The notes beneath the pieces are model-generated. The model saw only the letters and a program-made list of their open reading frames with translations. It did no database searches and was not told where the DNA came from. Shown in pieces: positions 1 to 16,740 of a stretch of DNA of 41,087 nt (within the stretch, counting starts at the first letter, position 1; the number at the start of each line of letters is the position of its first letter). This DNA is from an uncultured Clostridia bacterium. Lineage in GTDB: Bacteria; Bacillota; Clostridia; Christensenellales; Borkfalkiaceae. Made by a program: the position numbers and the translations under genes. Where the stretch lies: contig CANQJJ010000012.1 in assembly GCA_947624215.1 (NCBI GenBank), positions 1-41,087 on the forward strand, in the 5' to 3' direction.

Positions 1-48
1 GACCCCCTGCTTGTAAGGCAGGTGCTCTCCCGGCTGAGCTAAACTTCC
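1..48 (-). tRNA. tRNA-Val (anticodon TAC), 3' part cut by the window edge
   Basis: On the minus strand the 5' end (GGAAGTT acceptor strand, position 48) is followed by the D-arm GCTC...GAGC and an anticodon stem CCTGC/GCAGG. The stem encloses the loop CTTACAA, whose anticodon TAC reads GUA (valine). The variable loop, T-arm and acceptor 3' strand lie outside the window. A promoter sits directly upstream at 61-89. The cloverleaf half that is visible is regular, so the identity is fairly secure. Confidence 0.9.
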
Positions 49-2404: not shown

Positions 2405-5400
2405 ATGAAAAAATTTCTTTGTGTGTTACTCTCGGTCGCTTCGGCGTTTTGTCTGCTTCTCGGAATCGCAGCGTGCGATATTACGGGCGCAAATTCGACG
2501 AAATCCACAAACGCAATCCAGAACATAACATCCGAAGTGGTAGATGAAGGGATCAAAATCATTATTACCGCTGAGGACGGCAGTACCTACTCATTCATTG
2601 TGCCGAATGGCCGCAACGGTGCGGACGGAATGGCCCCCTATGTCGGAGAGAATGGTCATTGGTGGGTTGGCAGTGAGGATCTTGGAATTCCCGCGCAAGG
2701 AGTTTCCGGCACCGACGGACAGAACGGCCAGGACGGTCAAAACGGTCAAAACGGCGTGACTCCTCACATCGGTGAGAACGGAAATTGGTGGATCGGTGAA
2801 ACGGACACCAACATCCCCGCACGCGGCCAAGACGGACAAAACGGACAAAACGGACAGGATGGACAGGATGGGCAAAACGGTCAGGACGGAAAAAGCGCTT
2901 ATGAGCTTTATTGTTCCACGTATGGTTACGAGGGTAGTGAGGAACAATGGCTGAGCGATCTTGTCGCGGGCAGATTAAAAAATTCCACGGAGGAAATTTA
3001 CGACTATATTCCCGAGAACAATATCATCGCTGCAGTGGGAGAGGATATCTCCCTGCCGAAACAAGTCACGGCATATCTGGTAAGCGGATCCGCGATCTCC
3101 GTAGATGTAGAATGGGCGTCCCAACCCTCCTCGCGTTTTATCGGAGTCAAGTCGATCAAGGGATATGTAAAAGGCTATCCCGACGCGGTGATTTGCAATA
3201 TTAAGATCGTTGCTTATAATTCCAATGAAAAGTATATAGACGGCTTTGTCAACGGGCTCCTCCCGAACGACGAAACGACGGTCATTATCAGCAACGACGA
3301 CGGGTTTATGGAAAACTGCGTTCCCGCATATAACGGTTATTTCAAGGTAACTGTTCCCGTGGAAGGCCTTTACACCGTAAGGGTCGAAGCGCAAGGGTAC
3401 TATGCGGTCGCCGCACAGGTCGTCGAAATCAAGTCGGTAGCTTCCAATGCAGATAAATATAAAAATATCAAGCATATCAACTTTAATATAACGGCGATCC
3501 GGGATTCGGGCTACTTCTTCATTTGGACGCGCACCGAGACGGGCATTGACTACGAAGTTATCTCCTGTGTAGACAGCCAACCCGAAGTAGAATTCCTGAA
3601 TGAGAATATTGCTACGATCAGCAACATGGGCGCGGCTCCCCTTCTCCGCGATCGCTTCCACATTGTTTTGGACAATGCCAAGGAGCGGTGGACAAACGAG
3701 AATTCTTCGCGTTTTTATCAGCTTTATAGCACGATTCCGATGAGCGTTACAGAAGGGCTGAATTCGGTATGGACGCTTTCGAATGAATATATCCAAAACG
3801 ACATTGAATACTATGAGTTCAATGGAGTGTATTATGTCACTGTCTCCAAGGCGGCGCTTGTAAACGTCACGCCCCGCCGCGTTACGCTGGACGGCGTTGT
3901 AGGCAAATACTTCTCCAACAGGCTTTACAATGCGATGATCCGTTTCGTAACGGATGGCGGGAAAAAAGATGAGGCGTGCGAAACGATCCTCAGAGAAAAT
4001 TTCTGCACCTCCTTTGAAGTCCCCGATTATACAAAACTGACGGAAGGCATCACCGACGAGGGAGCTTGGGCTTTCGAGGAATTCAACCCCGAAGAAAAGC
4101 TTCTCATCCTCACGATGTTCGAGGAGATGCCGGAGGGCATGCACAAGATGCCGGAGTTGAAATACCTTGTCCGCAGAAAGACGGGGATGACGCATCCGCT
4201 CTATCCTGACGCCGCTGCGGTGACTTGGCCTTATGCCGATGAGCCCTATATTGAGTTTATGGACTCGACATTCTCGTCCTCAATGGGATATGCCCAGACC
4301 AAACGGCTGCTCATCCACGAAAAAACGCACATGTACTATGCCTATTATTTCAGCGATGAATTAAAGGCCAAGTGGAACGATGTCGGCGGGTGGTATATAA
4401 ATCCCGACGATCAGGACGGCTGGTCCACAACAAAACAGACTGAGTTCGTTTCCGCCTATGCGCATGCCCACAACCCCAACGAGGATATGGCGGAATCGGT
4501 TGCGGCGTATATTCTGGACCCCGCCCTCTTGAAGTCTCGCTCGATAGAGAAATATAACTTCATCCGCAACTACATCATGCAGGGCGACGTCTACATGCTT
4601 CAATTCCGCGAAGATCTCACCTTCGAAGTCTATAACCTCGATCCCGATTACATTTACCCCGGGCAGATCAAACAGATCATGCTCGATGTAAAAGGCGACG
4701 CCTTTGAAAACAAAGAGGTGACAACGACGATCACGATCAACGGCACAAATCCCAAAGAGGGCGCAAACTCCTTTTATTATCGCTGTACTTCCGCAAACGG
4801 AAAGAACTTTTACGATATTGGCGGAGGAGCAATAGACGACACTTTGCTTACCCTTCGCGGTTCGACAATTTTCTCCAACGAGTCTTACAGCGGATATTGG
4901 TACACCGACCAAATTGTTTTGAGTGACGTTTCCGGGAATGAGCGTTACGAGGGAAGTGCGGACTTCAATTACAAACTTTACATCGACAATCCGCTCATGG
5001 ACGACGAAGATCCCGAATATATCAGGGGAAGTTTGAACCTCGAACTGAGTAAAGTTCCGGACGGCGGACCGTTCAAAGACCAGGTTTTGAAAGTCAGTTA
5101 TTCGTTCAAGGAGAATCGTTGGTTGCAACGCGCCTTAATTAGGCTTGTTTGTATCGGAAACGGAAAAGATTCCATTGATGTAGACGCAGATGGCAGAGAT
5201 ATCGATCAAGTCAATCATACCGCCACACACTATGTCTATATCCCCGAATTTTATTCTTCGGGAGTATATGAAATTAGGGAAATCATATTGGAAGATCGTG
5301 CAGGGAATTATCATTGGGATGACCTGTATGATGGGCAGGATGGCAGCAGGATAACGATTACTACGCCCCGTCCCGACAACAAAGGTCCGGAACTGAATTT

Positions 5401-5752
5401 GAATGACATCTCTGTTTCCGCCGTTCCCGCCAATCCCGCTCATCCCGACGGTGAAACAATCGTTACATTAAAAATAAAGGTCAAGGATGATATTTCGGGG
5501 TTCCGTATAGGTTATGTCAACTTCATGGATCCGTTGGGACATTTATACGGAAACTGGATCTATCCCGAATGGTATGGCGCAAGCGGTTTCGGTGGTGGAG
5601 ACCCTACGGTGGAGCGAGAATTTACATTTACCATTACGCTTCCCAAAGGCAGCATGCCGGGAACTTGGGGGGTCTCCGAAATTACCCTTACCGATTTTGC
5701 AATGAATAACTCCGTTTACAACTTTACAGAGATCGTTCATTTCAAAGTTTGA
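2405..5752 (+). CDS. collagen-like lipoprotein with HExxH zinc metalloprotease motif
   Basis: A 1115-residue predicted surface lipoprotein. It has a signal peptide with lipobox GIAAC (acylated Cys24). Residues about 60-165 hold two copies of a GENGxWW(V/I)G...IPAxG motif alternating with collagen-like G-Q-N/G-Q-D triplets, a layout seen in many clostridial surface proteins, then a KSAYELY...GSEEQWL motif. A region near 275-345 resembles a carboxypeptidase-regulatory/Ig-like fold. Residues 638-642 read HEKTH (HExxH zinc motif), and 55 residues on comes NEDMAES with Glu697, a plausible third zinc ligand of the gluzincin type. The C-terminal third looks like tandem Ig-like domains, each with a DDISG-type motif. 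Start: ATG preceded by AAAGGAGAAGG. It stands alone between its own promoter and a perfect terminator hairpin. It probably acts as a cell-surface protease; the target is unknown. Confidence 0.8.
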   Translation: MKKFLCVLLSVASAFCLLLGIAACDITGANSTKSTNAIQNITSEVVDEGIKIIITAEDGSTYSFIVPNGRNGADGMAPYVGENGHWWVGSEDLGIPAQGVSGTDGQNGQDGQNGQNGVTPHIGENGNWWIGETDTNIPARGQDGQNGQNGQDGQDGQNGQDGKSAYELYCSTYGYEGSEEQWLSDLVAGRLKNSTEEIYDYIPENNIIAAVGEDISLPKQVTAYLVSGSAISVDVEWASQPSSRFIGVKSIKGYVKGYPDAVICNIKIVAYNSNEKYIDGFVNGLLPNDETTVIISNDDGFMENCVPAYNGYFKVTVPVEGLYTVRVEAQGYYAVAAQVVEIKSVASNADKYKNIKHINFNITAIRDSGYFFIWTRTETGIDYEVISCVDSQPEVEFLNENIATISNMGAAPLLRDRFHIVLDNAKERWTNENSSRFYQLYSTIPMSVTEGLNSVWTLSNEYIQNDIEYYEFNGVYYVTVSKAALVNVTPRRVTLDGVVGKYFSNRLYNAMIRFVTDGGKKDEACETILRENFCTSFEVPDYTKLTEGITDEGAWAFEEFNPEEKLLILTMFEEMPEGMHKMPELKYLVRRKTGMTHPLYPDAAAVTWPYADEPYIEFMDSTFSSSMGYAQTKRLLIHEKTHMYYAYYFSDELKAKWNDVGGWYINPDDQDGWSTTKQTEFVSAYAHAHNPNEDMAESVAAYILDPALLKSRSIEKYNFIRNYIMQGDVYMLQFREDLTFEVYNLDPDYIYPGQIKQIMLDVKGDAFENKEVTTTITINGTNPKEGANSFYYRCTSANGKNFYDIGGGAIDDTLLTLRGSTIFSNESYSGYWYTDQIVLSDVSGNERYEGSADFNYKLYIDNPLMDDEDPEYIRGSLNLELSKVPDGGPFKDQVLKVSYSFKENRWLQRALIRLVCIGNGKDSIDVDADGRDIDQVNHTATHYVYIPEFYSSGVYEIREIILEDRAGNYHWDDLYDGQDGSRITITTPRPDNKGPELNLNDISVSAVPANPAHPDGETIVTLKIKVKDDISGFRIGYVNFMDPLGHLYGNWIYPEWYGASGFGGGDPTVEREFTFTITLPKGSMPGTWGVSEITLTDFAMNNSVYNFTEIVHFKV

Positions 5753-5918: not shown

Positions 5919-6010
5919 TGGCGCAGAAGACGAGATTCGAACTCGTGCTACCTTTCACAGGTACTACTCCCTTAGCAGGGGAGCCCCTTGAGCCTCTTGG
6001 GTACTTCTGC
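5919..6010 (-). tRNA. tRNA-Ser (anticodon GCT), CCA encoded
   Basis: A 92-nt class II tRNA on the minus strand. The acceptor is GCAGAAG/CTTCTGC, the anticodon loop is CTGCTAAGG giving GCT (reads AGC/AGU), the serine-type variable arm is long, and the T-arm contains GTTCGAATC. It ends with an encoded CCA (TGG at 5919-5921 on the plus strand). Confidence 0.95.
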
Positions 6011-7976: not shown

Positions 7977-10247
7977 TCAAGCGGCGGTGAGCTTGACGGT
8001 CACCACCGTCATGTCGTCCTCCGCGACGCCGTGGAACCGGGCAAGGGCGGCGCCGAGGATCTCCTCCGCAAGGGCCTGCGGGTTGAGGGGGTGCAGGCGC
8101 GAGAGGTAGGCGCAGAGGTCGGAGGAGGACCCGAACGCAGCGGGGATGCCGTCGCTCATGAAGATGAGAAAGTCGTCCGCCTTGAGCTCTACGCGCAGGC
8201 AGGTGGGGTGGACCGTATCCAAGACCCCGATGGGCAGCGATTCCCCTTCGAGCACCTGCAACGTCTCCCCCGAGAGCACGAACCCCGCCGGCGAGCCGAT
8301 CTTGACGACGTCGGCCACCCCCGTGTCGAGGTTTACGGCTGCGAGATCGAGGCAGGAGAAGGTCTCCTCGGTCGAATAGGCGATGAGGCGGTTGACGGTC
8401 GCGAGCACCGTCTCGGAGGGCATTTTGGCCTTATAAAAACTCTCGAGGAGGGAGAGCGTCCTGTCGGAGACGGCCCGTGCCGCTTCCCCGCTGCCCATGC
8501 CGTCGGAGAGCGCGACGATGAACCGTCGCTCGTCGATCTTCAAAAAGGAGTGCGTGTCCCCGCTCGCGAGTTCACCCGCCTTGGTCCTCGCCGCCACGCC
8601 GAAGGAGGCGTCGTAGACGGGCTTTCTTTTGAGGAGAAAACAGGCGCGGCCCTCGGTGAGGGTGAATTTTTCCGAGAGGGAGAGGGGCACGCCGAGCGCC
8701 TTTTCCGCAATGCGGCACACCTTTTTCCCGCTCGCGGCCTCGTCAAGGGTGAGGGAGACGGTAAAGCGCTCCCCCTCGCCGTAGAGAAAGATCTCAAAGG
8801 AGAGCAGGCCCTCGCGCGCCAAAGCGGCCGCAAGACGCCGTTCCCCGTCCGAGAAGACGTATTCCTCGCTCTGTTCGAGGGCGATGCTCTGCAAGACTTC
8901 GCTGATCCCCTGTGCCTGTTCGGCGAGCAGTTTTCGGCCCTCGCGCGCAGTCTCGAGCTCGAGGTCGACGCGGGCATACTCGGCGAGGCGGTTGTTGAGG
9001 GAAAAGAGGATCCCCGCCGTGTTGATACAGTGGGCGGAGAGGTCGCAGGGCAGGTCGATGAGGTTGACGCGGCCCTTGGCACGGCCCACCGCGATGAGCT
9101 TGTCGAGGGCGTCAAAGACCCCGTAACTCTCGCAGACATGCCTGTTTGGGCAGGTCTCACACAGCTCGGAGAGTACTTTTGCCTTCATCTGCGCGGCGGT
9201 GACGGAGGGGCGGTCCTGCATGCGGAAGGCGAGCGCGATCTCGCGGAAGAGCGACGAGACCTCGTAGAGCTGTTCCCCCACGGCGCGGCGGGAGCGGTTT
9301 AAGGCGACGCGGGGGAGGGTGCGCTCGCGGTAGAAGAGAAGCGTCTTGTCGAGTTTGCGCAGGGCGGCGTCGGGGATGCAGATAAAGAGCAGAACGGGCA
9401 CAAGGCATGAAAGAAGGGAGAGCAGGATTTGGAGGATGCCGAGGGCATAGACCCCCTTGAGGGCGAGCGCGGCGGCATAGCTAAAAAGGAGAGCGAGGGA
9501 GGAAGCCGTCTTGCCGTACGGGCGGAGCAGGAGGGCGGCGGAGGCATAGATGACGAACTCGGCGAGAGGGGAGACGGCGCGGGAGAAGAGGCAGAGGGGG
9601 AGGGAGAGCACGGCGGCAAAGGGAACGGACGCAGCACTTCGCAAAAGCACCACGCCGCCGAGGAGCAGAAAGAGGGATACGGCATAGAAAAACTCCTCAC
9701 CGACCGCAGAGAGGGCACCCATGCCCGCGACGAGCCACAGGAGAGCGAGTTCCGTGAGTTCTGCGGGATCCAAACGGGTGCGGAAAACACGGGTGAGAAG
9801 GGCAGAGAGCGCGCCGTCGAACAGGACGCAGAGGAGCAGGATGGCGGCGGCAATGACGAGCTTTTGGAGGAGGGGCGAGAGCGGGAATCCATAGCCGTCG
9901 TGGGGGAAGAGAAAGAGGAAGGGGAGCTGGGCCGCGGCGGCATAGAGAAGGCGTTCGGGCCCGGGCTCGCGGTGAAAGCGGCGGGAGATGACGTAGCAAA
10001 GAAGCAAAAAGCAGGCCTGTATGGCGGCGGAGAGGGAGGCGGAAAGGGAGAGCGCGGCGGCGGAGGCGAGAAGATAGGCACCGCATGAGAGGAAGGGATC
10101 GAGACGGCTGAGCGCGGCAAAGAGGAGGGCGAAGGAAAGGGGCTCGCGGAAGGGGAGGGCGAAATTGCAAAGGAGCATGCCGGCGCAGAGGAGGAGATAT
10201 TTGAGGAGGGATGCGAAGGAGAGATGCAGGCGCGGAATTTTTTTCAT
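7977..10247 (-). CDS. spoIIE: stage II sporulation protein E (SpoIIE), PP2C-type serine phosphatase
   Basis: A 756-residue membrane protein that, in endospore formers, dephosphorylates SpoIIAA to release sigma-F in the forespore and takes part in polar septation. The N-terminal ~300 residues form about ten hydrophobic helices. A central regulatory region follows, then the C-terminal PP2C domain (about 568-756) with SDGMGSG (Asp582), a second SDG near 699 and EDDMT (Asp744/745), the metal-binding acidic residues. Bacillus SpoIIE has 827 residues and the same layout. The start MKKIPRL at 10247 is chosen because GGGGG lies 6 nt upstream and the -10 box at 10287 gives a sensible leader; a longer frame to 10379 crosses that promoter. 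The gene stands alone. Confidence 0.93.
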   Translation of the reverse strand: MKKIPRLHLSFASLLKYLLLCAGMLLCNFALPFREPLSFALLFAALSRLDPFLSCGAYLLASAAALSLSASLSAAIQACFLLLCYVISRRFHREPGPERLLYAAAAQLPFLFLFPHDGYGFPLSPLLQKLVIAAAILLLCVLFDGALSALLTRVFRTRLDPAELTELALLWLVAGMGALSAVGEEFFYAVSLFLLLGGVVLLRSAASVPFAAVLSLPLCLFSRAVSPLAEFVIYASAALLLRPYGKTASSLALLFSYAAALALKGVYALGILQILLSLLSCLVPVLLFICIPDAALRKLDKTLLFYRERTLPRVALNRSRRAVGEQLYEVSSLFREIALAFRMQDRPSVTAAQMKAKVLSELCETCPNRHVCESYGVFDALDKLIAVGRAKGRVNLIDLPCDLSAHCINTAGILFSLNNRLAEYARVDLELETAREGRKLLAEQAQGISEVLQSIALEQSEEYVFSDGERRLAAALAREGLLSFEIFLYGEGERFTVSLTLDEAASGKKVCRIAEKALGVPLSLSEKFTLTEGRACFLLKRKPVYDASFGVAARTKAGELASGDTHSFLKIDERRFIVALSDGMGSGEAARAVSDRTLSLLESFYKAKMPSETVLATVNRLIAYSTEETFSCLDLAAVNLDTGVADVVKIGSPAGFVLSGETLQVLEGESLPIGVLDTVHPTCLRVELKADDFLIFMSDGIPAAFGSSSDLCAYLSRLHPLNPQALAEEILGAALARFHGVAEDDMTVVTVKLTAA

Positions 10248-10286
10248 ACAGGCCCCCGTGGGGACGTTCCCCATGATAATGAAAGA

Positions 10287-10331
10287 ATTATAATGAAAAA
10301 ACCTCCGCGCATCACGGCCTGTTTTGACGGA
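10287..10331 (-). promoter_or_regulatory. probable Spo0A-controlled promoter of spoIIE
   Basis: Minus strand: -10 TATAAT (10287-10292) with no good -35. A sequence TCCGTCAAA (10323-10331), 7/9 to the Spo0A box TTTGTCRAA, is centred about 37 bp upstream of the -10. In Bacillus, spoIIE is transcribed by sigma-A with Spo0A~P at such boxes. The -10 is seen directly; the 0A box is inference. Confidence 0.5.
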
Positions 10332-10440
10332 AAAGCGCGAAGTGTGTAGAGGGATCGTGAATACCATGTCTGCGAACACCCCCGATCCAAGTGTGCCCCT
10401 CCATGGGAGGGGTGGAGTGGCGACGGGGATCGTGTATACG

Positions 10441-10571
10441 TCCCGCGCGCTCCGCGCGCGTCATTCTGCCCGACCGAGGCCAATCAAAGCGTCCCGCGCG
10501 CTCCGCGCGCGTCATTCTGCCCGACCGAGGCCAATCAAAGCGTCCCGCGCGCTCCGCGCGCGTCATTCTGA
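10441..10571. repeat. 51-bp tandem repeat, about 2.5 copies
   Basis: Units start at 10441, 10492 and 10543. Each carries the palindrome GCGCGCTCCGCGCGC followed by module R2 (GTCATTCTGCCCGACC). The copies are essentially identical, indicating recent expansion. Confidence 0.9.
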
Positions 10572-10930
10572 GCCGAAAGAGCATGTATGAGAGCGAATTG
10601 CTCATCCGCGAAGAATCTTGCTACGACCAAGCTCGTGTGAGCGCCCCCTTGGCGCCCCTGTAAGGGGAGCTCCACCGATGCCCTTTCGGCGGTGACCGAT
10701 TGAGGTTTCTATTTGTGCTACTAAAATCGACACGAGCGCCCCGCGCGAAGTAGGGGTTTTCTTGCCTTCCCTTCTGGGGAAGGTGCCCGTAGGGCGGATG
10801 AGGAGAAACCCTTTCGGCGCACAAGGACAGTGCGCCACTTTCCTTACAGGGACAGCAAGAGGGGCGTCGCTTACCACCACACGGACTTCGTTTGAGGGTA
10901 CCATGTCTGCGACGGGGCCCAATCGAAGCG
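10572..10930. repeat. interspersed repeat mosaic
   Basis: Holds the CCGCGAAGAATCTTGCTACG module (near 10598), a CCCCTGTAAGGGGAGCTCC module (near 10655), a reverse copy of the TACTTCGC element family (near 10700-10755), R8 and R1 (10760-10862) and a TACCATGTC motif (10898-10910). No gene is supported. Confidence 0.8.
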
Positions 10931-10932
10931 TT

Positions 10933-11082
10933 ACCCCCTCCTTGGGGAGGGGGGTAGGGGAGTGGGGCTACGATCGCCCTTCCTTATGAAATTCAATCGG
11001 TTTTCTTTATAAAAAGCGGAAGGAACGGTTGTATCCCCACCTCAGTCACGATGTGACAGCTCCTCCCCGAGGAGGCGCTTTT
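10933..11082. repeat. R6, MITE-like repeat, copy 1
   Basis: About 150 bp bounded by related inverted ends: CCCCCTCCTTGGGGAGGGG on the left and CTCCTCCCCGAGGAGG on the right. The interior includes AAAAAGCGGAAGGAAC and CCCCACCTCAGTCACG. Other copies lie at 27042-27231 and 32587-32738; ends are conserved while the middle varies in length. No coding capacity. Confidence 0.8.
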
Positions 11083-11140
11083 CGTCGGACTTCGTATCGT
11101 CATTACGGCTCAGGATGACGCGTTCCCCTCCGCACAAGAA

Positions 11141-11178
11141 AAACAGCAAAAAACAACCCCCGCGCAACCGCACGGGGG
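11141..11178 (-). terminator. rho-independent terminator of the structured RNA
   Basis: Minus strand: CCCCCGTGC-GGTT-GCGCGGGGG followed by TTGTTTTTTGCTGTTTTT. Confidence 0.9.
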
Positions 11179-11292
11179 GATCTATTTCTTAATTCAGTTG
11201 TGGAGGGGCTGGCGTGCGCCGACATCCACAGTGCCTTGGTCCTCGACCCTACGCGGGATTACAACTCATCGCGTGTCGTTCGGATGTCTCGT

Positions 11293-11325
11293 TTACGTTT
11301 CCGCCCCTATCATATCCGGGTACAT
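11293..11325 (-). CDS. possible 10-codon ORF inside the structured RNA
   Basis: Reads MYPDMIGAET then TAA. The ATG at 11325 is preceded, 8 nt upstream, by TAGGAGGAGG, among the strongest ribosome sites in the window. That site directly follows a perfect CTTGA/TCAAG hairpin (11344-11356). It could be a real leader peptide or regulatory start, or the purine tract could be a structural element of the RNA. Confidence 0.3.
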   Translation of the reverse strand: MYPDMIGAET

Positions 11326-11545
11326 TGGTGTGTCCTCCTCCTACTTGATCTTCAAGCTCTGAAAGATTCTCATATCGCGTACCTCCCGATATGGCGATGC
11401 GGGCTACACCGCATCAGCGGTGCCCTGTTTACAAACTTTCCCGTCTGCTACCAGCTGCGTCCGGTTTCCAGTTATCTGTCCATCGGAGTTTCCCGCCTTG
11501 TTTGAAAATAACTTTTTTTGTAAGTTATTTTCTTTTTGTACCTTT

Positions 11546-11573
11546 ATTATAGCATGGATTTTTTATCTGTCAA
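11546..11573 (-). promoter_or_regulatory. sigma-A promoter of the structured RNA
   Basis: Minus strand: -35 TTGACA (11568-11573), 16-bp spacer, -10 TATAAT (11546-11551). Predicted start near 11539. It sits in an AT-rich patch (11500-11620) unlike the surrounding GC-rich repeats. Confidence 0.85.
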
Positions 11574-11846
11574 TAGTTTTGGGAAAAATTTTTTGGGTTT
11601 TTTCGCAAATTTTTTTATTGGGAGGGAAGCGACTGAATCAGCAGACTGTGCTGTGAGGATGAGACTTAGGTCTACGCTGTCATACCGAAGCCCCATAAGG
11701 GGCTGAGTGTATCCCCTCATACGCAGTCCGTGTTGTGGTAAGCGCGTCATCCTGAGCCGTAATGATAATACGAAGTCCGTCGCGGCTGTCCTCGAAGGAT
11801 CCCGAAGAACGAAGTCCGACTGTTTGGGAAACAGACCATGTGTTCC

Positions 11847-11930
11847 ATTACGTCATGCTGAGCTCCGTCGAAGCATCACCGCATTTTAAGACTAAGGTGA
11901 CCCTTCGACACAGCTTAGGGTGACGTTATT
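11847..11930. repeat. R4 fold-back palindrome, copy 1
   Basis: About 84 bp. Ends ATTACGTCA...TGACGTTATT are inverted repeats and the inner arms (TCGAAGCATCACC / GGTGACCCTTCGA) also pair, so the unit folds into one long hairpin. The family recurs at 16368-16448, 26797-26875, 28951-29033 and 33884-33964. Confidence 0.8.
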
Positions 11931-11939
11931 GGAATGCCT

Positions 11940-12300
11940 TGGTCGTTCACACGGGCTTGGTCGTAGCAAGATTCTTCGCGGATGAGCAGTTCGCTCTCAT
12001 TCAAACTGTTACGGCTACTTCGCGCTACGCGCTCGTGTCGACCTTAGTAACACAATCAGAAGCCTCGGTCGGGCAGAATGACGCTTCGATTGAGCTTGGT
12101 CGTAGCAAGATTCTTCGCGGATGGGCAATTCGCTCTCATACAAACCCTTTCGGCTACTTCGCGCTACGCGCTCGTGTCGACCTTAGTAGCACAATCAGAA
12201 GCCTCGGTCGGGCAGAATGACGCTTTGGATGAGCTTAGTCGGGCAGAATGACGCTTTGGATGAGCTTAGTCGGGCAGAATGACGCTCGGGATGGGCCCAA
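11940..12300. repeat. tandem arrangement of repeat modules (about 140-bp and 31-bp periods)
   Basis: The block CGTAGCAAGATTCTTCGCGG ... TACTTCGCGCTACGCGCTCG ... GGGCAGAATGACGC occurs twice, offset by 140 bp (11961 and 12101). It is followed by a 31-bp unit (GGGCAGAATGACGC plus GATGAGCTTAGTC) repeated about three times to 12290. No gene is supported. Confidence 0.85.
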
Positions 12301-12408: not shown

Positions 12409-13611
12409 TCACTTCATCGAGAGGACCTCTGTCTCGATCACCGGCGTGACGGCCGAAAGCAGGACGTCCTTCCACTCCTCATACTTTTTCAGCGAACTCC
12501 GGTAGAGCATGCGGGTCAGCCCGAAAATGTCGCACCCGCTCTCCTTGCCCATGTCCCAAAGCGTCTGCACATAGCCCGTCAGCGTCTTCTTTGCGCTCTC
12601 CAAGATCTTCGGCGAGACGGAATCCGAGGCAATGTCCTCCACGGGCGCCGTCACCCCGCGGCAACACAGGCGCACCGTCACCGAGAGCGAGAGCTCGGCC
12701 TTCGGGGCATGCGCGCTGTCCAATTTCACGCCCCCTTCATTGCGTACGACGGTCAGTGTTACGGGCATGGTACCGTCCTTTGCGTTGAACGTCCCCGTAA
12801 ACACATTTCCCTCGAGCAGGCTGAGCGCGAGCGTCTGTTCTTGCGGGAGGAGCCCGACCATCCGCCCCTCCTTGAAGAGCGCGGTCTGCTCTGCGCTGTA
12901 GATCTGCTGTTTTTCGCCGCCGCTACCGCCGCTGCCGCCGCTACTGCCGCTTCCCCCCGCCGCGGTCTGGCTGTCGTTCTGCCCGCCCTCCTGCTCCTCC
13001 ATGCGCACATAGGGGAGATAACTGCACTTGGAGACGCCGTAGTAGTCGATGGCGAAGTCCTTCAAGGTATTGGTGAGGACCCTCCCCGATTTCACGGCCG
13101 CCTCGGAGAACAGCTTCTCGATGGCGAGGGAGGAGGCGTCGTCGATGGCGCTCGTGGAGGAGATGAGCTCGCCCGCCTTGCCCTCACACACGGCGAGAAG
13201 ACAGGAATCGGGCATGTAGTCGTTGCGCAAAAAGTAGTTGAGGTGGGAGATGATGTCCTCCTCCTTTACGGCGTCCTCCCCGAGCACGATGAGGTCGCAG
13301 AAGACGAGCTTGGGCACCCACCCCGTCTTGGAGAAGATGAGGGAGATACAGTCGGATACCGTCTCGCCCTCCGCTTGGATCTCCACCGAGGAGGTCCCGC
13401 CCGTCGTGCGGTCGCTGCCCTTAGGTACGGCGATCTGCGCCGTCACGGAGAAACCCTCGTCCGTCTTGTCGATGCCTGCGGCGAGGATGATGGCCGTCTT
13501 CTGGATGTCCACGAGCCCGAAATCGTTGGAGAAAAAGGCAAAGAGCACGACCGCCGTGAGGATGAGCCACAGCTTCATGGGGACTGTCTGCAAGAATCTC
13601 TTAAACCGCAC
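12409..13611 (-). CDS. gerC: spore germination protein GerC (Ger(x)C family), no lipobox
   Basis: A 400-residue third subunit of the germinant receptor at the spore inner membrane. The sequence follows the Ger(x)C pattern after the leader (DIQKTAIILAAGIDKT..GFSVTAQI, then the central and C-terminal GerC domains ending in a KTLTGYVQTLWDMGKESGCDIFG-type helix). Family members are normally lipoproteins; here the N-terminus (KLWLILTAVVLFAFFSNDFG) is hydrophobic but has no Cys, so it would be a membrane-anchored form. A low-complexity GGSGSSGGSGG insert sits near residue 230. The start is a GTG overlapping the end of gerB by 11 nt, with AGGAGG 7 nt upstream, giving tight translational coupling. 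Confidence 0.88.
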   Translation of the reverse strand: MRFKRFLQTVPMKLWLILTAVVLFAFFSNDFGLVDIQKTAIILAAGIDKTDEGFSVTAQIAVPKGSDRTTGGTSSVEIQAEGETVSDCISLIFSKTGWVPKLVFCDLIVLGEDAVKEEDIISHLNYFLRNDYMPDSCLLAVCEGKAGELISSTSAIDDASSLAIEKLFSEAAVKSGRVLTNTLKDFAIDYYGVSKCSYLPYVRMEEQEGGQNDSQTAAGGSGSSGGSGGSGGEKQQIYSAEQTALFKEGRMVGLLPQEQTLALSLLEGNVFTGTFNAKDGTMPVTLTVVRNEGGVKLDSAHAPKAELSLSVTVRLCCRGVTAPVEDIASDSVSPKILESAKKTLTGYVQTLWDMGKESGCDIFGLTRMLYRSSLKKYEEWKDVLLSAVTPVIETEVLSMK

Positions 13612-14674
13612 GGCGACGCCTCCTCAAAAGTAACAAAAGCGGCGGGATGACGACGGAGAACAGGGGCATGACCCAGAATGCCCACTTCGTAACGCCGTCG
13701 AGCACCTCGGTAAAGCGGTAGTCGAGGAGGACGTCGAGGGTCAGAAAGACCGCCGTCACGCCGATCGCGAGCAGGGTGGGGAGATAGCGCGGGCGGCCGT
13801 ATGCCTCGAGCGCACACTCGATGCTCCCCTGCAGGGGCAGGGTGACGTAGAAGGCCATCACGAGGGCGAGCGCGAAGATGAAGAGATAGTCGATGCGCCC
13901 GAGCGTGGTGACCCCGGGGAAGTAGCGCGACGTCACCGTGAACGCGAAGAGCTGGTTGGGCGCGGTCTCCTGAAAGATGCCCCAAAAGATGGCCGTGAAC
14001 AGCAATACGGCTGCCCCGCCCGCGAGGTAGCACAGGGTCCCCTTCCACGCGAGGCCCTTTTCATAGTCGAATTTTCCGAGGAGCGGCAGGAGGAGCGCGG
14101 CGTCGAAGAACCACGCCATTGCGGACATGGTACCCTCGAAAAAGCCCTTCTGCCCTGCGGCGCCGACGGGAGCGAGGGCGGAGAAGTCTGCGCTTGCGGC
14201 CGAGAGCACCAAGATCCCGGCAAGGCCGAAGATGGCGAGCGGGGCCAAGATGTCCCACACCCGCCCGTGCGAGGCGAGCGGCTTGGAGAGGACGTAGACG
14301 GCGAACAGGAAGTAGGGGGCAAAGGCCACGAGAGAGGGCAGGGTGTCGTAGAAGACGGACTGCACCATGACCTTCTGTTCGAGCACGGGCAAAAGCCCCG
14401 CAAAGAGCAGAAAGAGGGCGAAGACGGTGAGCAGGATCTTGGATACGACGCGCCCGAAGGTATTTTCGAGCAGTTCTGCAAAGCTCATGCCGCGCTTTGC
14501 AACGAGCAGGGTGCAGAAGACGGCCGCGGCCTGCAAGAGGTAGGCGGCGAGCAGGGGGAAGAGAAGGTCGTTCTTCGAAGTATCGGCGAGGCGGGCGGGG
14601 AGCAGGACGATCTTGCCCACAGGGGCCACGCAGGCGAGGAAGAAGAGCAATTGGCGCGCGGAGATCTTATTCAT
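13601..14674 (-). CDS. gerB: spore germination protein GerB, APC-superfamily permease
   Basis: A 357-residue integral membrane protein with about ten hydrophobic helices, matching the GerAB/spore permease family, which forms the transmembrane germinant-sensing subunit with GerA and GerC. The N-terminus (MNKISARQLLFFLACVAPVGKIVLLPA) is characteristic. Its ATG overlaps the gerA stop (ATGA), and AAGGAGG lies 4 nt upstream inside gerA. The gene contains one TACCATGTC motif, read as TMSA (14121-14133). Confidence 0.92.
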   Translation of the reverse strand: MNKISARQLLFFLACVAPVGKIVLLPARLADTSKNDLLFPLLAAYLLQAAAVFCTLLVAKRGMSFAELLENTFGRVVSKILLTVFALFLLFAGLLPVLEQKVMVQSVFYDTLPSLVAFAPYFLFAVYVLSKPLASHGRVWDILAPLAIFGLAGILVLSAASADFSALAPVGAAGQKGFFEGTMSAMAWFFDAALLLPLLGKFDYEKGLAWKGTLCYLAGGAAVLLFTAIFWGIFQETAPNQLFAFTVTSRYFPGVTTLGRIDYLFIFALALVMAFYVTLPLQGSIECALEAYGRPRYLPTLLAIGVTAVFLTLDVLLDYRFTEVLDGVTKWAFWVMPLFSVVIPPLLLLLRRRRRAV

Positions 14675-16101
14675 GAGAGCCTCCTTCTATTGGGACTTTT
14701 GAGCGTTTGCGGCCGCATTTCGAGAGAGCCGAGGTTGTATTTGATGAGAGAATCCCTCAGATCCCGCCCGCGCAAAGGGGAGAAGGGCGCGACGAGGGGT
14801 GCGGAGAAGTTCTCCGTGGTGACGAGATAGAGGATGACGAAGGCCGTGGCGAGGAGGACGCCGTAGGTGCCCACGCTGCCCGCGACCAACAGCATGGCGA
14901 GGCGGAGAACGCTCGTCTGTTCGATGAGGTTGGGGACGGCATACAGCCCGATGCCCGAGAAGGCGATAATGATGATGGCGGGCGTGGAGACAAATCCCGC
15001 CGAGACGGCCGTCTCCCCGAGCACGAGCGCGCCCACCACCGAGAGCGCCATGCCGACGTATTTGGGCATGCGGATGGAGGCCTCGTTCAAAACCTCTAAG
15101 ACGAGCAGGACGAGCAGCATTTCGAGGGAGGGGGAGAAGGGGATGTCGCGGATGCTCCCCGCAATTGTCAAAAGCAGCTTTACGGGGAACAGCTGTAATT
15201 TGAAGAGTTGTGCGGAGACGTAGAATGCAGGCAGATAAATGGCCACGAGGAGGGCAAAGAGACGCAGGAGGCGGGTGAACGTGGCGCGATAGGGAGGGAC
15301 GAAGTAATCCTCGCTCGATTGAAAGTCCTCGATGAGCAGATAGGGCACGGTCAGGGCGATGGGGGAGCCGTCCACGATGAGACCCACCCTGCCCTCGGCG
15401 AGCTTGGCGCAGAAGATGTCGGGCTTTTCGGTCGTGCCCACCTGTTTGACGAGGGAGTAGGGGCGGGAGGCGAGAAAGTGGGTGAGGTAGGAGGAATCGG
15501 GGATGATGTCGATGTCGATTCCTTGGAGCTTTTGCTTGACGGCCTCCACGGTGGCCTTGGGTGCCGTTCCCTCGAGATAGCAGACGGCGACGGTGGTGGA
15601 GGAGCGGCGGCCCACGTCGGTCGTATCGATTTTGAGCTCGCCCGTTTTGAGGCGGCGGCGGATGAGAGCGGTGTTGGTCTTGAAGTCCTCGATGAAGCCT
15701 TCGCGGGGGCCTTTGAGGGTCACATCCGTCGGGGGCTCGGCGATCGCGCGGACGGGAATTTTTTTGGTGCCGACGACAACGCCCATATCCATGTCCGAGA
15801 AGAGGACGACGGGATTGCCGATGAGCACTTCTTCGGCGAGTTTTTCGAGGGACTTTTCCGTCTTGGCTTCGGGGGAGGAGAGGGCCTTTAAGACCTCCTC
15901 TGCGCGGGGTGCGCCCGTGTATTGGCGGAGGGGGCGGATGACCTGCTCGCCGAGGAGATCCTTGTCGGTGAGGGGGTCGGCGAAGAGGACGCAGAAGGAG
16001 AGCTTGGGGGAAGCGAACTCGAAGGTGAGGAAATCGTCGGCGGGGAGCATTTTTTTGAGTGCCTCTTTGGAGCGTTCCAGATCGGCGGAGACATTTTTCA
16101 T
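14671..16101 (-). CDS. gerA: spore germination protein GerA
   Basis: A 476-residue GerAA-family subunit of the germinant receptor, the usual family length. It has an N-terminal hydrophilic domain (about 1-275, with the conserved ADDFLTFEF, REGFIEDFKTN and RRLKTGELKI stretches) and a C-terminal membrane domain with PPYRATFTRLLR, LLEVLNEASIRMPKYVG and TPAIIIIAFSGI-like helices. The start is placed at MKNVSADLER (16101). An open frame continues upstream to 16314, but only through repeat DNA. No Shine-Dalgarno precedes 16101; instead a sigma-G-like promoter ends at the ATG (see 16107-16136). First gene of the gerA-gerB-gerC operon. Confidence 0.92.
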   Translation of the reverse strand: MKNVSADLERSKEALKKMLPADDFLTFEFASPKLSFCVLFADPLTDKDLLGEQVIRPLRQYTGAPRAEEVLKALSSPEAKTEKSLEKLAEEVLIGNPVVLFSDMDMGVVVGTKKIPVRAIAEPPTDVTLKGPREGFIEDFKTNTALIRRRLKTGELKIDTTDVGRRSSTTVAVCYLEGTAPKATVEAVKQKLQGIDIDIIPDSSYLTHFLASRPYSLVKQVGTTEKPDIFCAKLAEGRVGLIVDGSPIALTVPYLLIEDFQSSEDYFVPPYRATFTRLLRLFALLVAIYLPAFYVSAQLFKLQLFPVKLLLTIAGSIRDIPFSPSLEMLLVLLVLEVLNEASIRMPKYVGMALSVVGALVLGETAVSAGFVSTPAIIIIAFSGIGLYAVPNLIEQTSVLRLAMLLVAGSVGTYGVLLATAFVILYLVTTENFSAPLVAPFSPLRGRDLRDSLIKYNLGSLEMRPQTLKSPNRRRLS

Positions 16102-16106
16102 GATAG

Positions 16107-16136
16107 GAGTATGCCGCCCGCGGCCTGCTTTTATGC
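16107..16136 (-). promoter_or_regulatory. candidate sigma-G promoter of the ger operon
   Basis: Minus strand: -35 GCATA (16132-16136), 18-bp spacer, -10 CATACTC (16107-16113). This agrees with the sigma-G consensus GMATR-N18-CATNHTA except for the last base. Sigma-G is the expected forespore regulator of germinant-receptor operons. The start would fall on or within a base of the gerA ATG, implying a leaderless message. Confidence 0.5.
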
Positions 16137-16189
16137 GGACAGACATAAAGGCCGGGTAGGGCGGAATAAGATAGTTTAAGGTCATGCGG

Positions 16190-16740
16190 GTATAAGAGAG
16201 CTCCTTGGCGCCCCTGCGCGAAGTTGATTGCCGCCCAAACCCGATCGGAGCGTCCGCGCGCTCCGCGCGCGTCATTCTGAGCCGCATTGGCATGGAATAG
16301 AGCGAACTGCCCATCCGCGAAGAATCTTGCTACGACCGAGCCCGTGTGAGCGCCCAAGGCATTCCCAATTACGTCACCCTGAGCCGTGTCGAAGGGTCAC
16401 CGCATTATAAACAAGGTGATGTTTCGACTACGCTCAACATGACGTAACATAGCGCATGGTCTGTTTCCCAAGCAGTCGGACTTCGTTCTTCGGGATCCTT
16501 CGGGGACAGCCGCGTCGGACTTCGTATCGTCATTACGGCTCAGGATGACGCGTTTCCCACCACCGCGGACTTCGTTTGAGCGCCCCCTCGCCTTCCCTTC
16601 TGGGGAAGGTGCCCCGTAAGGGGCGGATGAGGTCGGATGAGGAGAGAAACCCTTTCCCCCCTCGCAAGGGCCTCGGGGTACTTTCCCTTACAGGGACAGC
16701 AAGGGGAGCGTCGCTTACCACACCGCGGACTTCGTTTAAG
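16190..16740. repeat. interspersed repeat mosaic between ger operon and pdaB
   Basis: Contains the GCGCGCTCCGCGCGC-R2 unit (16255-16280), the CCGCGAAGAATCTTGCTACG module (16316-16336), an R4 palindrome (16368-16448), R3 (TTCTTCGGGATCCTTCGGGG, near 16496), and R8 with R1 (16585-16710). No gene is supported. Confidence 0.85.
16368..16448. repeat. R4 fold-back palindrome, copy 2
   Basis: ATTACGTCACCCTGA at one end and a TCAACATGACGTAAC arm at the other; the inner arms are TCGAAGGGTCACC and GGTGATGTTTCGA. The two arms carry different sequence variants. Confidence 0.75.

What the first reader, a model, noticed from the sequence alone, without database searches (positions are those of the whole stretch)
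11141..11540. Unrecognised ~400-nt structured RNA with its own promoter and terminator
Seen: TTGACA-16-TATAAT promoter, strong intrinsic terminator, unique AT/GC-mixed sequence set in repeat DNA, no long ORF and many perfect hairpins. Two hairpin pairs are mutually exclusive: GATGCGG/CCGCATC (11396-11415) against CACCGC/GCGGTG (11407-11422), and CTTGA/TCAAG (11344-11356) against an ATCTT/AAGAT stem sharing the same bases. The loop of 11371-11393 reads GGAGGTACG and could pair with CCCCTCC near the RNA 3' end as a pseudoknot. Known families recalled (RNase P, tmRNA, SRP, T-box) do not fit. Inference: an abundant housekeeping or regulatory RNA, possibly raiA-like, or a new class.
Basis: partly seen in the sequence, partly recalled or inferred. 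Interest (0 to 1): 0.8.

Follow-up and report, generated by a model that had tools for sequence, protein, structure and literature searches.

The report
Strongly promoted array of tiny ORFs
Between two sets of spore genes of a gut bacterium lies a short RNA gene with a near-perfect promoter that is not a classical structured RNA but carries several minute coding frames of about 2 to 13 codons, kept across three genera; no published description was found in the searches made here.

Summary
The transcription unit is real: perfect TTGACA-16-TATAAT promoter and a terminator, no Rfam match. It recurs in 86 of 101 congeneric genomes, own included, and in 3 of 18 genera of the family: probably Gallimonas, Borkfalkia and an unnamed one. 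Of 111 loci with a readable promoter, 98 are exactly TTGACA-16-TATAAT. In 86 genus loci the first stop of ORF2 falls at 7-14 codons in 86 and of ORF1 in 83, against 7-32 in shifted frames; the three exceptions fuse both ORFs in frame. The RNA lies between gerABC and spoIIE in either orientation (59 co-oriented, 17 inverted, 10 undetermined), so it is autonomous. raiA and a CsrA sponge fail. Best reading: an abundant, translated minigene-array RNA, probably a translation-coupled regulator. Translation is supported by sequence only; expression, mechanism and targets are inferred.

The parts
11546..11573 (-). Promoter TTGACA-16-TATAAT with extended TG
   Evidence: 12/12; the best-scoring site upstream of ORF1 is exactly TTGACA/TATAAT in 98 of 111 loci, spacer 16 in 111 of 111, TG in 110 of 111
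11504..11532 (-). 5' hairpin GAAAATAACTTAC...GTTATTTTC near the inferred RNA start
   Evidence: Located; RNAalifold did not keep it, direct count on 38 loci: 85.1% of cells paired, 3 of 9 pairs with changes on both sides, covariation score reached by 32 of 500 shuffles: modest support
11472..11483 (-). ORF0: ATG GAC AGA TAA (MDR*)
   Evidence: recognised by pattern in 61 of 70 genus loci and by eye in 7 of 16 others, e.g. MDK*, MDRKA*, MHN*, MNR*, MH*, MG*, MHIRYLKS*
11431..11448 (-). Small hairpin GCAGAC-GGGAAA-GTTTGT
   Evidence: The only helix of the consensus fold of 38 five-prime regions: 4 pairs, 2 with changes on both sides
11371..11393 (-). Hairpin CATATCG-GGAGGTACG-CGATATG: Shine-Dalgarno of ORF1 in the loop, start codon in the stem
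   Evidence: 57 of 86 loci CATATC/GATATG, 7 of 86 CATAAC/GTTATG, 3 more with a G-U pair, the other 19 without this stem or with part of it; on 30 loci 92.8% of cells paired, covariation score above all 500 shuffles, one pair with changes on both sides
11341..11373 (-). ORF1: MRIFQSLKIK*
   Evidence: First in-frame stop after 7-14 codons in 83 of 86 genus loci, 19 of 19 g10 loci, 5 of 7 g8 loci
11327..11338 (-). Shine-Dalgarno and conserved CC of ORF2 (GGAGGACACACC)
   Evidence: GGAGG and CC columns invariant in 30 aligned cores
11293..11325 (-). ORF2: MYPDMIGAET*
   Evidence: First in-frame stop after 7-14 codons in 86 of 86 genus loci, 19 of 19 g10, 7 of 7 g8; start ATG 99, GTG 9, ACG 4 of 112
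11209..11292 (-). Variable region, unconserved in length
   Evidence: From the ORF2 start codons to the 3' motif 105-604 nt in the genus loci where the motif was found
11192..11208 (-). C-rich element plus conserved motif CCCCTCC-ACAACTGAAT
   Evidence: Motif or close variant within 950 nt of ORF2 in 101 of 111 loci: 76 of 85 genus, 19 of 19 g10, 6 of 7 g8
11147..11178 (-). Intrinsic terminator
   Evidence: in 30 loci 7 of 8 consensus pairs have changes on both sides
7977..10379 (-). spoIIE (context, not part of the RNA)
   Evidence: Pfam SpoIIE 5.2e-27 and SpoIIE_N 5e-16
12409..16314 (-). Spore germination genes GerAC, permease, GerA (context)
   Evidence: Pfam Spore_GerAC_N 3.7e-32, Spore_permease 1.9e-13, GerA 1.6e-135

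Best explanation
It is a free-standing, probably very abundant RNA gene that is translated: an array of tiny ORFs (minigenes) of 2-13 codons, each with a Shine-Dalgarno, read from a consensus sigma-A type promoter and closed by a terminator. Shown by sequence: promoter, terminator, conserved frames, autonomy from its neighbours. Inferred: rapid rounds of initiation and termination on the minigenes, coupled from ORF1 to ORF2 (usually 15 nt apart in the genus; 6 nt or overlapping in g8), hold the RNA in a ribosome-covered state. When initiation or elongation fails, the SD hairpin closes and the C-rich 3' element can pair with the exposed Shine-Dalgarno, changing the stability or the trans activity of the RNA. 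It would thus report translation status to the cell. The ORF1 peptide sequence matters at least in Borkfalkia, as a nascent chain or as a product.
For: 98 of 111 promoters exactly consensus with the same 16-nt spacer. First stop at 7-14 codons in frame in 83 (ORF1) and 86 (ORF2) of 86 genus loci, against 17 and 9 or 7 and 32 in shifted frames. 2.38 SD-led frames of 2-13 codons per RNA (5' part, to 40 nt past the ORF2 start) against 0.31 in dinucleotide shuffles and 0.12 on the reverse strand, n 111. ORF2 starts switch ATG/GTG, and all three stop codons are used. In L136 an inserted and a deleted base relative to L059 cancel and the same stop is kept (an assembly error cannot be excluded). In 3 of 86 loci loss of the ORF1 stop and of the ORF2 ATG goes with an in-frame fusion. 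ORF1 in Borkfalkia, 6 pairs: 17 synonymous to 5 non-synonymous codon changes, 5.4 synonymous expected. ORFs of 2-3 codons (MG*, MH*, MHN*, MDR*) are unlikely products by themselves. RNA inverted between the same neighbours in 17 of 86.
Against: No expression, ribosome-profiling or peptide data, and no trans target was sought or found. SD to C-rich element pairing shows no locus-specific covariation in the genus or g10. The SD hairpin in its exact forms is missing in 22 of 86 loci, 3 of these keeping it with a G-U pair. The ORF1-ORF2 fusion and the Borkfalkia synonymous excess fit functional peptides at least as well as a sensor. In the genus ORF1 (16 synonymous, 15.4 expected) and ORF2 (15, 17.9 expected) show no synonymous excess among close pairs. 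ORF0 was not recognised in 9 of 70 loci by pattern (5 of these without a recognised promoter; one of the other four, L061, reads MIM* by eye) nor in 9 of 16 others by eye. At least four genus genomes with spoIIE (G036, G037, G068, G083) gave no copy.
Confidence: 0.42

Rival explanations
1. A micropeptide mRNA: ORF1 (basic, often ending -LKI[KS]*) and ORF2 (MY....GAE.) make peptides that act in trans, and the RNA is only their messenger.
For: Recognisable peptide consensus in the genus; Borkfalkia ORF1 synonymous excess and, over all genera, ORF1 33 synonymous against 20.7 expected; ORF2 third-position excess 64 against 51.4 (P 0.012); in-frame fusion of ORF1 and ORF2 in three loci.
Against: No synonymous excess for ORF2 or for ORF1 within the genus; additional ORFs of 2-5 codons; the cancelling frameshifts of L136 change the middle of the ORF2 peptide.
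Confidence: 0.27
2. A cis-acting leader or attenuator of the next gene.
For: Promoter, small ORFs and terminator are the parts of an attenuator. A candidate relative in f82 lies directly upstream of a choloylglycine hydrolase gene in both genomes that have it.
Against: In the genus the RNA points towards spoIIE in some species and away from it in others (59 co-oriented, 17 inverted, 10 undetermined of 86); the f9 and both f13 candidates face convergent genes.
Confidence: 0.07
3. A structured non-coding RNA in which the SD, AUG and stop triplets are incidental.
For: Folds better than shuffles (z -3.27); local hairpins with some covariation.
Against: Consensus folds keep little outside the terminator; frame conservation and start-codon switches.
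Confidence: 0.05
4. A CsrB-like sponge presenting GGA motifs to CsrA.
For: GGAGG in a hairpin loop and repeated GGA motifs (sequence).
Against: CsrA (PF02599) found in 0 of 21 genomes (13 of the genus, 8 of other families of the order; no g10 or g8 genome was in this set), while the control found it in E. coli, B. subtilis and T. maritima. A sponge for another SD-binding protein is not excluded.
Confidence: 0.02
5. A divergent copy of a common housekeeping RNA (RNase P, tmRNA, SRP, 6S, raiA).
For: Length and strong promoter.
Against: No Rfam hit, only tRNA-Ser by ARAGORN in the window, raiA absent from 13 of 13 genus genomes, coding evidence. Whether RNase P, SRP, tmRNA and 6S lie elsewhere in the genome was not tested.
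Confidence: 0.02

Closest known systems
Two-codon minigene mg2 in the axe-txe toxin-antitoxin leader (PMC8708949, abstract and outline seen)
   Same: A two-codon ORF whose translation has an effect; proposed to protect the mRNA from endonuclease attack
   Different: There it acts in cis on a following gene; here several minigenes make up a free-standing RNA with its own terminator
sORF and uORF motifs of intergenic RNA screens (PMC6429828 and PMC11109978, passages seen)
   Same: Conserved start and stop codons with an SD in an intergenic transcript; sORFs without a consistent downstream gene
   Different: No tandem array of ORFs of 2-13 codons appears in the passages seen; supplements were not read
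raiA RNA (RF03072)
   Same: An RNA gene found in related families
   Different: RF03072 has 209 positions, about half this length; this RNA does not match it and the tested genus genomes have none
Dual-function sRNAs such as SgrS/SgrT (recalled, not looked up)
   Same: A small RNA that is also translated
   Different: One ORF of tens of codons plus a base-pairing region; here several ORFs of at most 13 codons and no known target
Phage lambda bar minigenes (recalled, not looked up)
   Same: Dicodon ORFs with an SD
   Different: Known for toxicity in pth mutants; here conserved chromosomal genes

Membership tests
raiA RNA | Match to covariance model RF03072 | tested here: not met
   No raiA hit in 11050-11650 at E up to 10; 0 of 13 genus genomes, 3 of 8 genomes of other families, 2 above cut-off
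Any Rfam 15 family | Score above gathering threshold | tested here: not met
   14 homologous loci at E up to 1 give only a 5S rRNA at the edge of L005 and two sub-threshold hits
Highly structured large ncRNA (OLE, ROOL, GOLLD kind; kinds recalled) | Extensive covarying secondary structure | tested here: not met
   Consensus folds keep 2, 4 and 8 pairs in three regions, two further local hairpins supported to different degrees; the variable region was not tested
CsrB/RsmZ sponge | Genome encodes CsrA | tested here: not met
   0 of 21 genomes, controls positive
Attenuator / uORF leader | Consistent downstream gene in the same orientation | tested here: not met
   59 co-oriented, 17 inverted, 10 undetermined of 86; the tentative f82 relatives do have one
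sORF-encoding RNA | Conserved start, stop, frame and SD | tested here: met
sORF-encoding RNA | Amino-acid-level selection | tested here: inconclusive
   Clear for Borkfalkia ORF1, no synonymous excess in the genus or for ORF2
Minigene RNA | Ribosomes translate the 2-5 codon ORFs | not testable with these tools
   Needs ribosome profiling
tmRNA | tRNA-like domain and tag ORF | tested here: not met
   ARAGORN finds only tRNA-Ser in the window

The most novel reading that the evidence does not exclude
A new class of bacterial RNA, the minigene-array RNA: a housekeeping-level transcript whose function is to be translated in tandem micro-cycles, acting as a translation sensor or ribosome reservoir, present in three genera of one family (Borkfalkiaceae by name, recalled) and, in divergent forms with fMet-Tyr-stop units, in other families of the same order and perhaps further Clostridia.
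Probability: 0.3. Interest if true: 0.9.

Novelty: categorically new. Interest (0 to 1): 0.72.

Why it matters
Annotation usually passes over ORFs this short, and structure-based RNA searches pass over translated RNAs, so a class like this falls between both (general knowledge). It comes with a near-invariant consensus promoter and three genera in which frames rather than folds are conserved. If translation itself is the function, it gives a natural and testable case of an RNA that works by being translated rather than by its product, in little-studied, spore-gene-bearing gut bacteria.

Tried and rejected
Rejected: raiA, CsrA sponge, cis leader of spoIIE or trailer of the ger operon, phage or plasmid element (no hit in phages or plasmids; no viral contig with the core pattern), common structure with switching hairpins.

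The 4 class-wide matches for MY-stop units (331 genomes) have no TTGACA/TATAAT-type promoter in the 400 nt upstream, so that search gave no support for a wider spread. The R2 search of 391 class genomes had 18 matching genomes; of the 14 loci looked at, one (L324, f82) fits, 9 had no start motif near the centre, 3 start longer frames, one is a 3-codon frame with a poor promoter. In the f82 family 2 of 21 genomes have it. Of the seven non-family order hits viewed (L165-L171) L166 fits, L170 partly, five do not; two more had no locus; L161 fits. Of the 30 loci of the order-wide pattern search (297 genomes), most are ordinary frames or poor promoters. These distant candidates were chosen by eye after the search; homology is not shown. 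SD to 3' element covariation: none in genus or g10. Genus amino-acid constraint: none seen. Presence of the RNA does not track SpoIIE strictly.

Rows left out: of 26 g10 genomes matched, 19 were fetched and counted; of the 86 genus genomes, G027 (weak, E 0.004) was not fetched and G281 was added, so 86 were counted; 16 of these missed the first pattern and were placed with model R1, so no fetched genus locus was dropped. Of g8, the 7 genomes matched were counted. L028 has no promoter because its contig ends there. The second place in G005 (C36) was not counted. The 59 five-prime and 57 three-prime regions listed were cut to 38 and 30.

Full report
What is there. The minus strand of 11147-11573 is a complete transcription unit: TTGACA-16-TATAAT with an extended TG, 12 of 12 consensus bases, and a 9-pair terminator-like stem with a T-rich tail. 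Rfam has no match there at its thresholds and only sub-threshold hits at E up to 10; 14 homologous loci give none either. The genome gives one match.

Conservation. BLASTN finds it in 86 of 101 genomes of the genus at E up to 0.01, the own genome included. A model of the central 114 positions (R1) finds it in 74 of 301 genomes of the family, in 3 of 18 genera. Equal contig lengths tie the genus to Candidatus Gallimonas and g10 to Candidatus Borkfalkia (inference); g8 is unnamed. I collected 112 loci: 86 genus, 19 g10, 7 g8. Of 111 with a readable promoter (best-scoring site upstream of ORF1), 98 read exactly TTGACA and TATAAT, all have a 16-nt spacer, 110 have TG before the -10. Such constancy is what one expects of a very strongly transcribed gene (inference). 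Approximate RNA length, promoter to terminator: median 430 nt in 76 genus loci (368-909), 521 in 19 g10, 399 in 6 g8.

It is translated, by sequence evidence. Read 5' to 3', the RNA has three small ORFs in the window: MDR* (11472-11483), MRIFQSLKIK* (11341-11373) and MYPDMIGAET* (11293-11325). In the genus ORF1 is 8-13 codons (83 of 86), ORF2 9-13 (86 of 86); the first stop falls at 7-14 codons in frame in 83 and 86 of 86, but in only 17 and 9 (shift 1) or 7 and 32 (shift 2) when the frame is shifted. In g10 it is 19 and 19 of 19 against 0-8; in g8 5 and 7 of 7 against 0-4. The ORF1 stop lies 15 nt before the ORF2 start in 71 of 86. ORF2 starts with ATG 99, GTG 9 and ACG 4 times of 112, and all three stop codons are used in both ORFs. 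L136 carries an inserted and a deleted base relative to L059 that cancel, keeping the same stop. In L138, L140 and L141 the ORF1 stop is out of frame, the ORF2 start is ACG, and the two frames are fused into one of 29 codons; these three are near-identical and may share one event. In L128 the ORF2 start is ACG without fusion. SD-led frames of 2-13 codons occur 2.38 times per RNA, against 0.31 in shuffles and 0.12 on the reverse strand. ORF0 varies from 2 to 11 codons (MG*, MH*, MDR*, MDRKA*, MHIRYLKS* and others); it was recognised by pattern in 61 of 70 loci and by eye in 7 of 16 others, where it is doubled in L128 (MH*, MY*) and tripled in L138, L140 and L141 (MCT*, MHN*, MTM*).

Peptide or act of translation. 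Among nearest pairs, ORF1 of Borkfalkia (6 pairs) shows 17 synonymous and 5 non-synonymous codon changes where 5.4 synonymous are expected, so that peptide is constrained. ORF1 in the genus (22 pairs, 16 against 15.4 expected) and ORF2 (42 pairs, 25 against 25.1) are not by this test, though ORF2 has a mild third-position excess (64 against 51.4, P 0.012). Frame and length are kept more strictly than sequence.

Structure. The 30-locus core folds to 2 consensus pairs, 38 five-prime regions to one 4-pair hairpin, 30 three-prime ends to the terminator alone. The hairpin that holds the ORF1 Shine-Dalgarno in its loop and the AUG in its stem is kept as CATATC/GATATG in 57 and as CATAAC/GTTATG in 7 of 86 loci, 3 more have a G-U pair; on 30 loci its covariation score exceeds all 500 shuffles. 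The 5' hairpin at 11504-11532 has modest support (85.1% of cells paired, 32 of 500 shuffles reach its score). A C-rich stretch before the motif ACAACTGAAT is more complementary to the Shine-Dalgarno than its shuffles but does not covary with it in the genus or g10.

Autonomy. Upstream lie GerA, permease and GerAC, downstream spoIIE. Of 86 genus loci, 59 have the RNA co-oriented with the neighbours found, 17 have it inverted, 10 have no neighbour in reach. It is therefore no leader or trailer in the genus. SpoIIE_N is found in 95 of 101 genus genomes, including G036, G037, G068 and G083, where no RNA was found, so a strict tie to sporulation is not shown.

Wider relatives (tentative). In f13 (L319, L320) an RNA with a 12-of-12 promoter, spacer 17, carries short basic ORFs (MKKLCNFKI* in L319; MIKRYYLEI* and MRKFIICKIFR* in L320) alternating with an SD followed by CCAATG minigenes; in L320 two of these are ATG TAC TAA and the last frame runs into ACAACTGAATA before a terminator. 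f9 (L312, promoter 11 of 12) has MNWLKNIFVGNN* and MYHSINKSEEFVN* with AAAATTGAATA (ORFs not printed there were read by eye). In f82 two of 21 genomes share five small ORFs with an ATG/GTG swap, but there the RNA lies upstream of a choloylglycine hydrolase gene in both, so it may be a leader. These were picked by eye from weak hits and are leads, not proof of homology. A class-wide search for MY-stop units gave no supporting case.

What it is not. raiA is absent from 13 of 13 genus genomes; CsrA from 21 of 21 genomes tested, none of them g10 or g8; phage, plasmid and viral collections gave nothing.

Literature. Searches showed no description of such an RNA in their listings; from PMC6429828 and PMC11109978 I saw passages, from PMC8708949 the abstract and outline. 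Subscription papers and supplements are not covered, so absence from print is not proven.

Verdict. A new RNA class at the level of sequence evidence (about 0.9 that ORF1 and ORF2 are translated, my estimate); mechanism open between a translation-coupled regulator (0.42) and a micropeptide messenger (0.27).

Noticed in passing
L338 and L339 (f82); RNA at about 1501-2091 of L338, minus strand: Five small ORFs (MRMIRAV[HY]*, [MV]KMIRAVYFIRK*, MYNH*, MLKFISSKQIKRILLNPIA*, LNN*) upstream of a choloylglycine hydrolase gene in both genomes; a possible leader of that gene.
   Followed up: partly
L319 and L320 (f13): Dicodon ORFs such as ATG TAC TAA preceded by AAAGGAA...CCA, repeated with short basic ORFs between a consensus promoter and a terminator.
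   Followed up: partly
L138, L140, L141: Three extra minigenes (MCT*, MHN*, MTM*) in the 5' part and an in-frame fusion of ORF1 and ORF2.
   Followed up: partly
L299 (G183) and L315 (G390): Single tiny ORFs MYTCCV* and MYETCP* with an SD and promoters of 11 and 12 of 12, each followed by another possible ORF start (by eye).
   Followed up: no
G005:C11 and G005:C36: Two places match the RNA in one genome bin; the bin has 4% contamination, so this may be a mixed assembly.
   Followed up: no
window 10440-10600 and 11900-12290: Repeated units (CCCGCGCGCTCCGCGCGCGTCATTCTG and TAGTCGGGCAGAATGACGCT...) flank the RNA on both sides; seen by eye.
   Followed up: no
window 2405-5752, plus strand: 1115-aa frame with a Big_4 domain match, perhaps a surface protein.
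   Followed up: no
window 5919-6010 and 1-48, minus strand: tRNA-Ser (gct) gene; a second tRNA is cut off at the window start.
   Followed up: no
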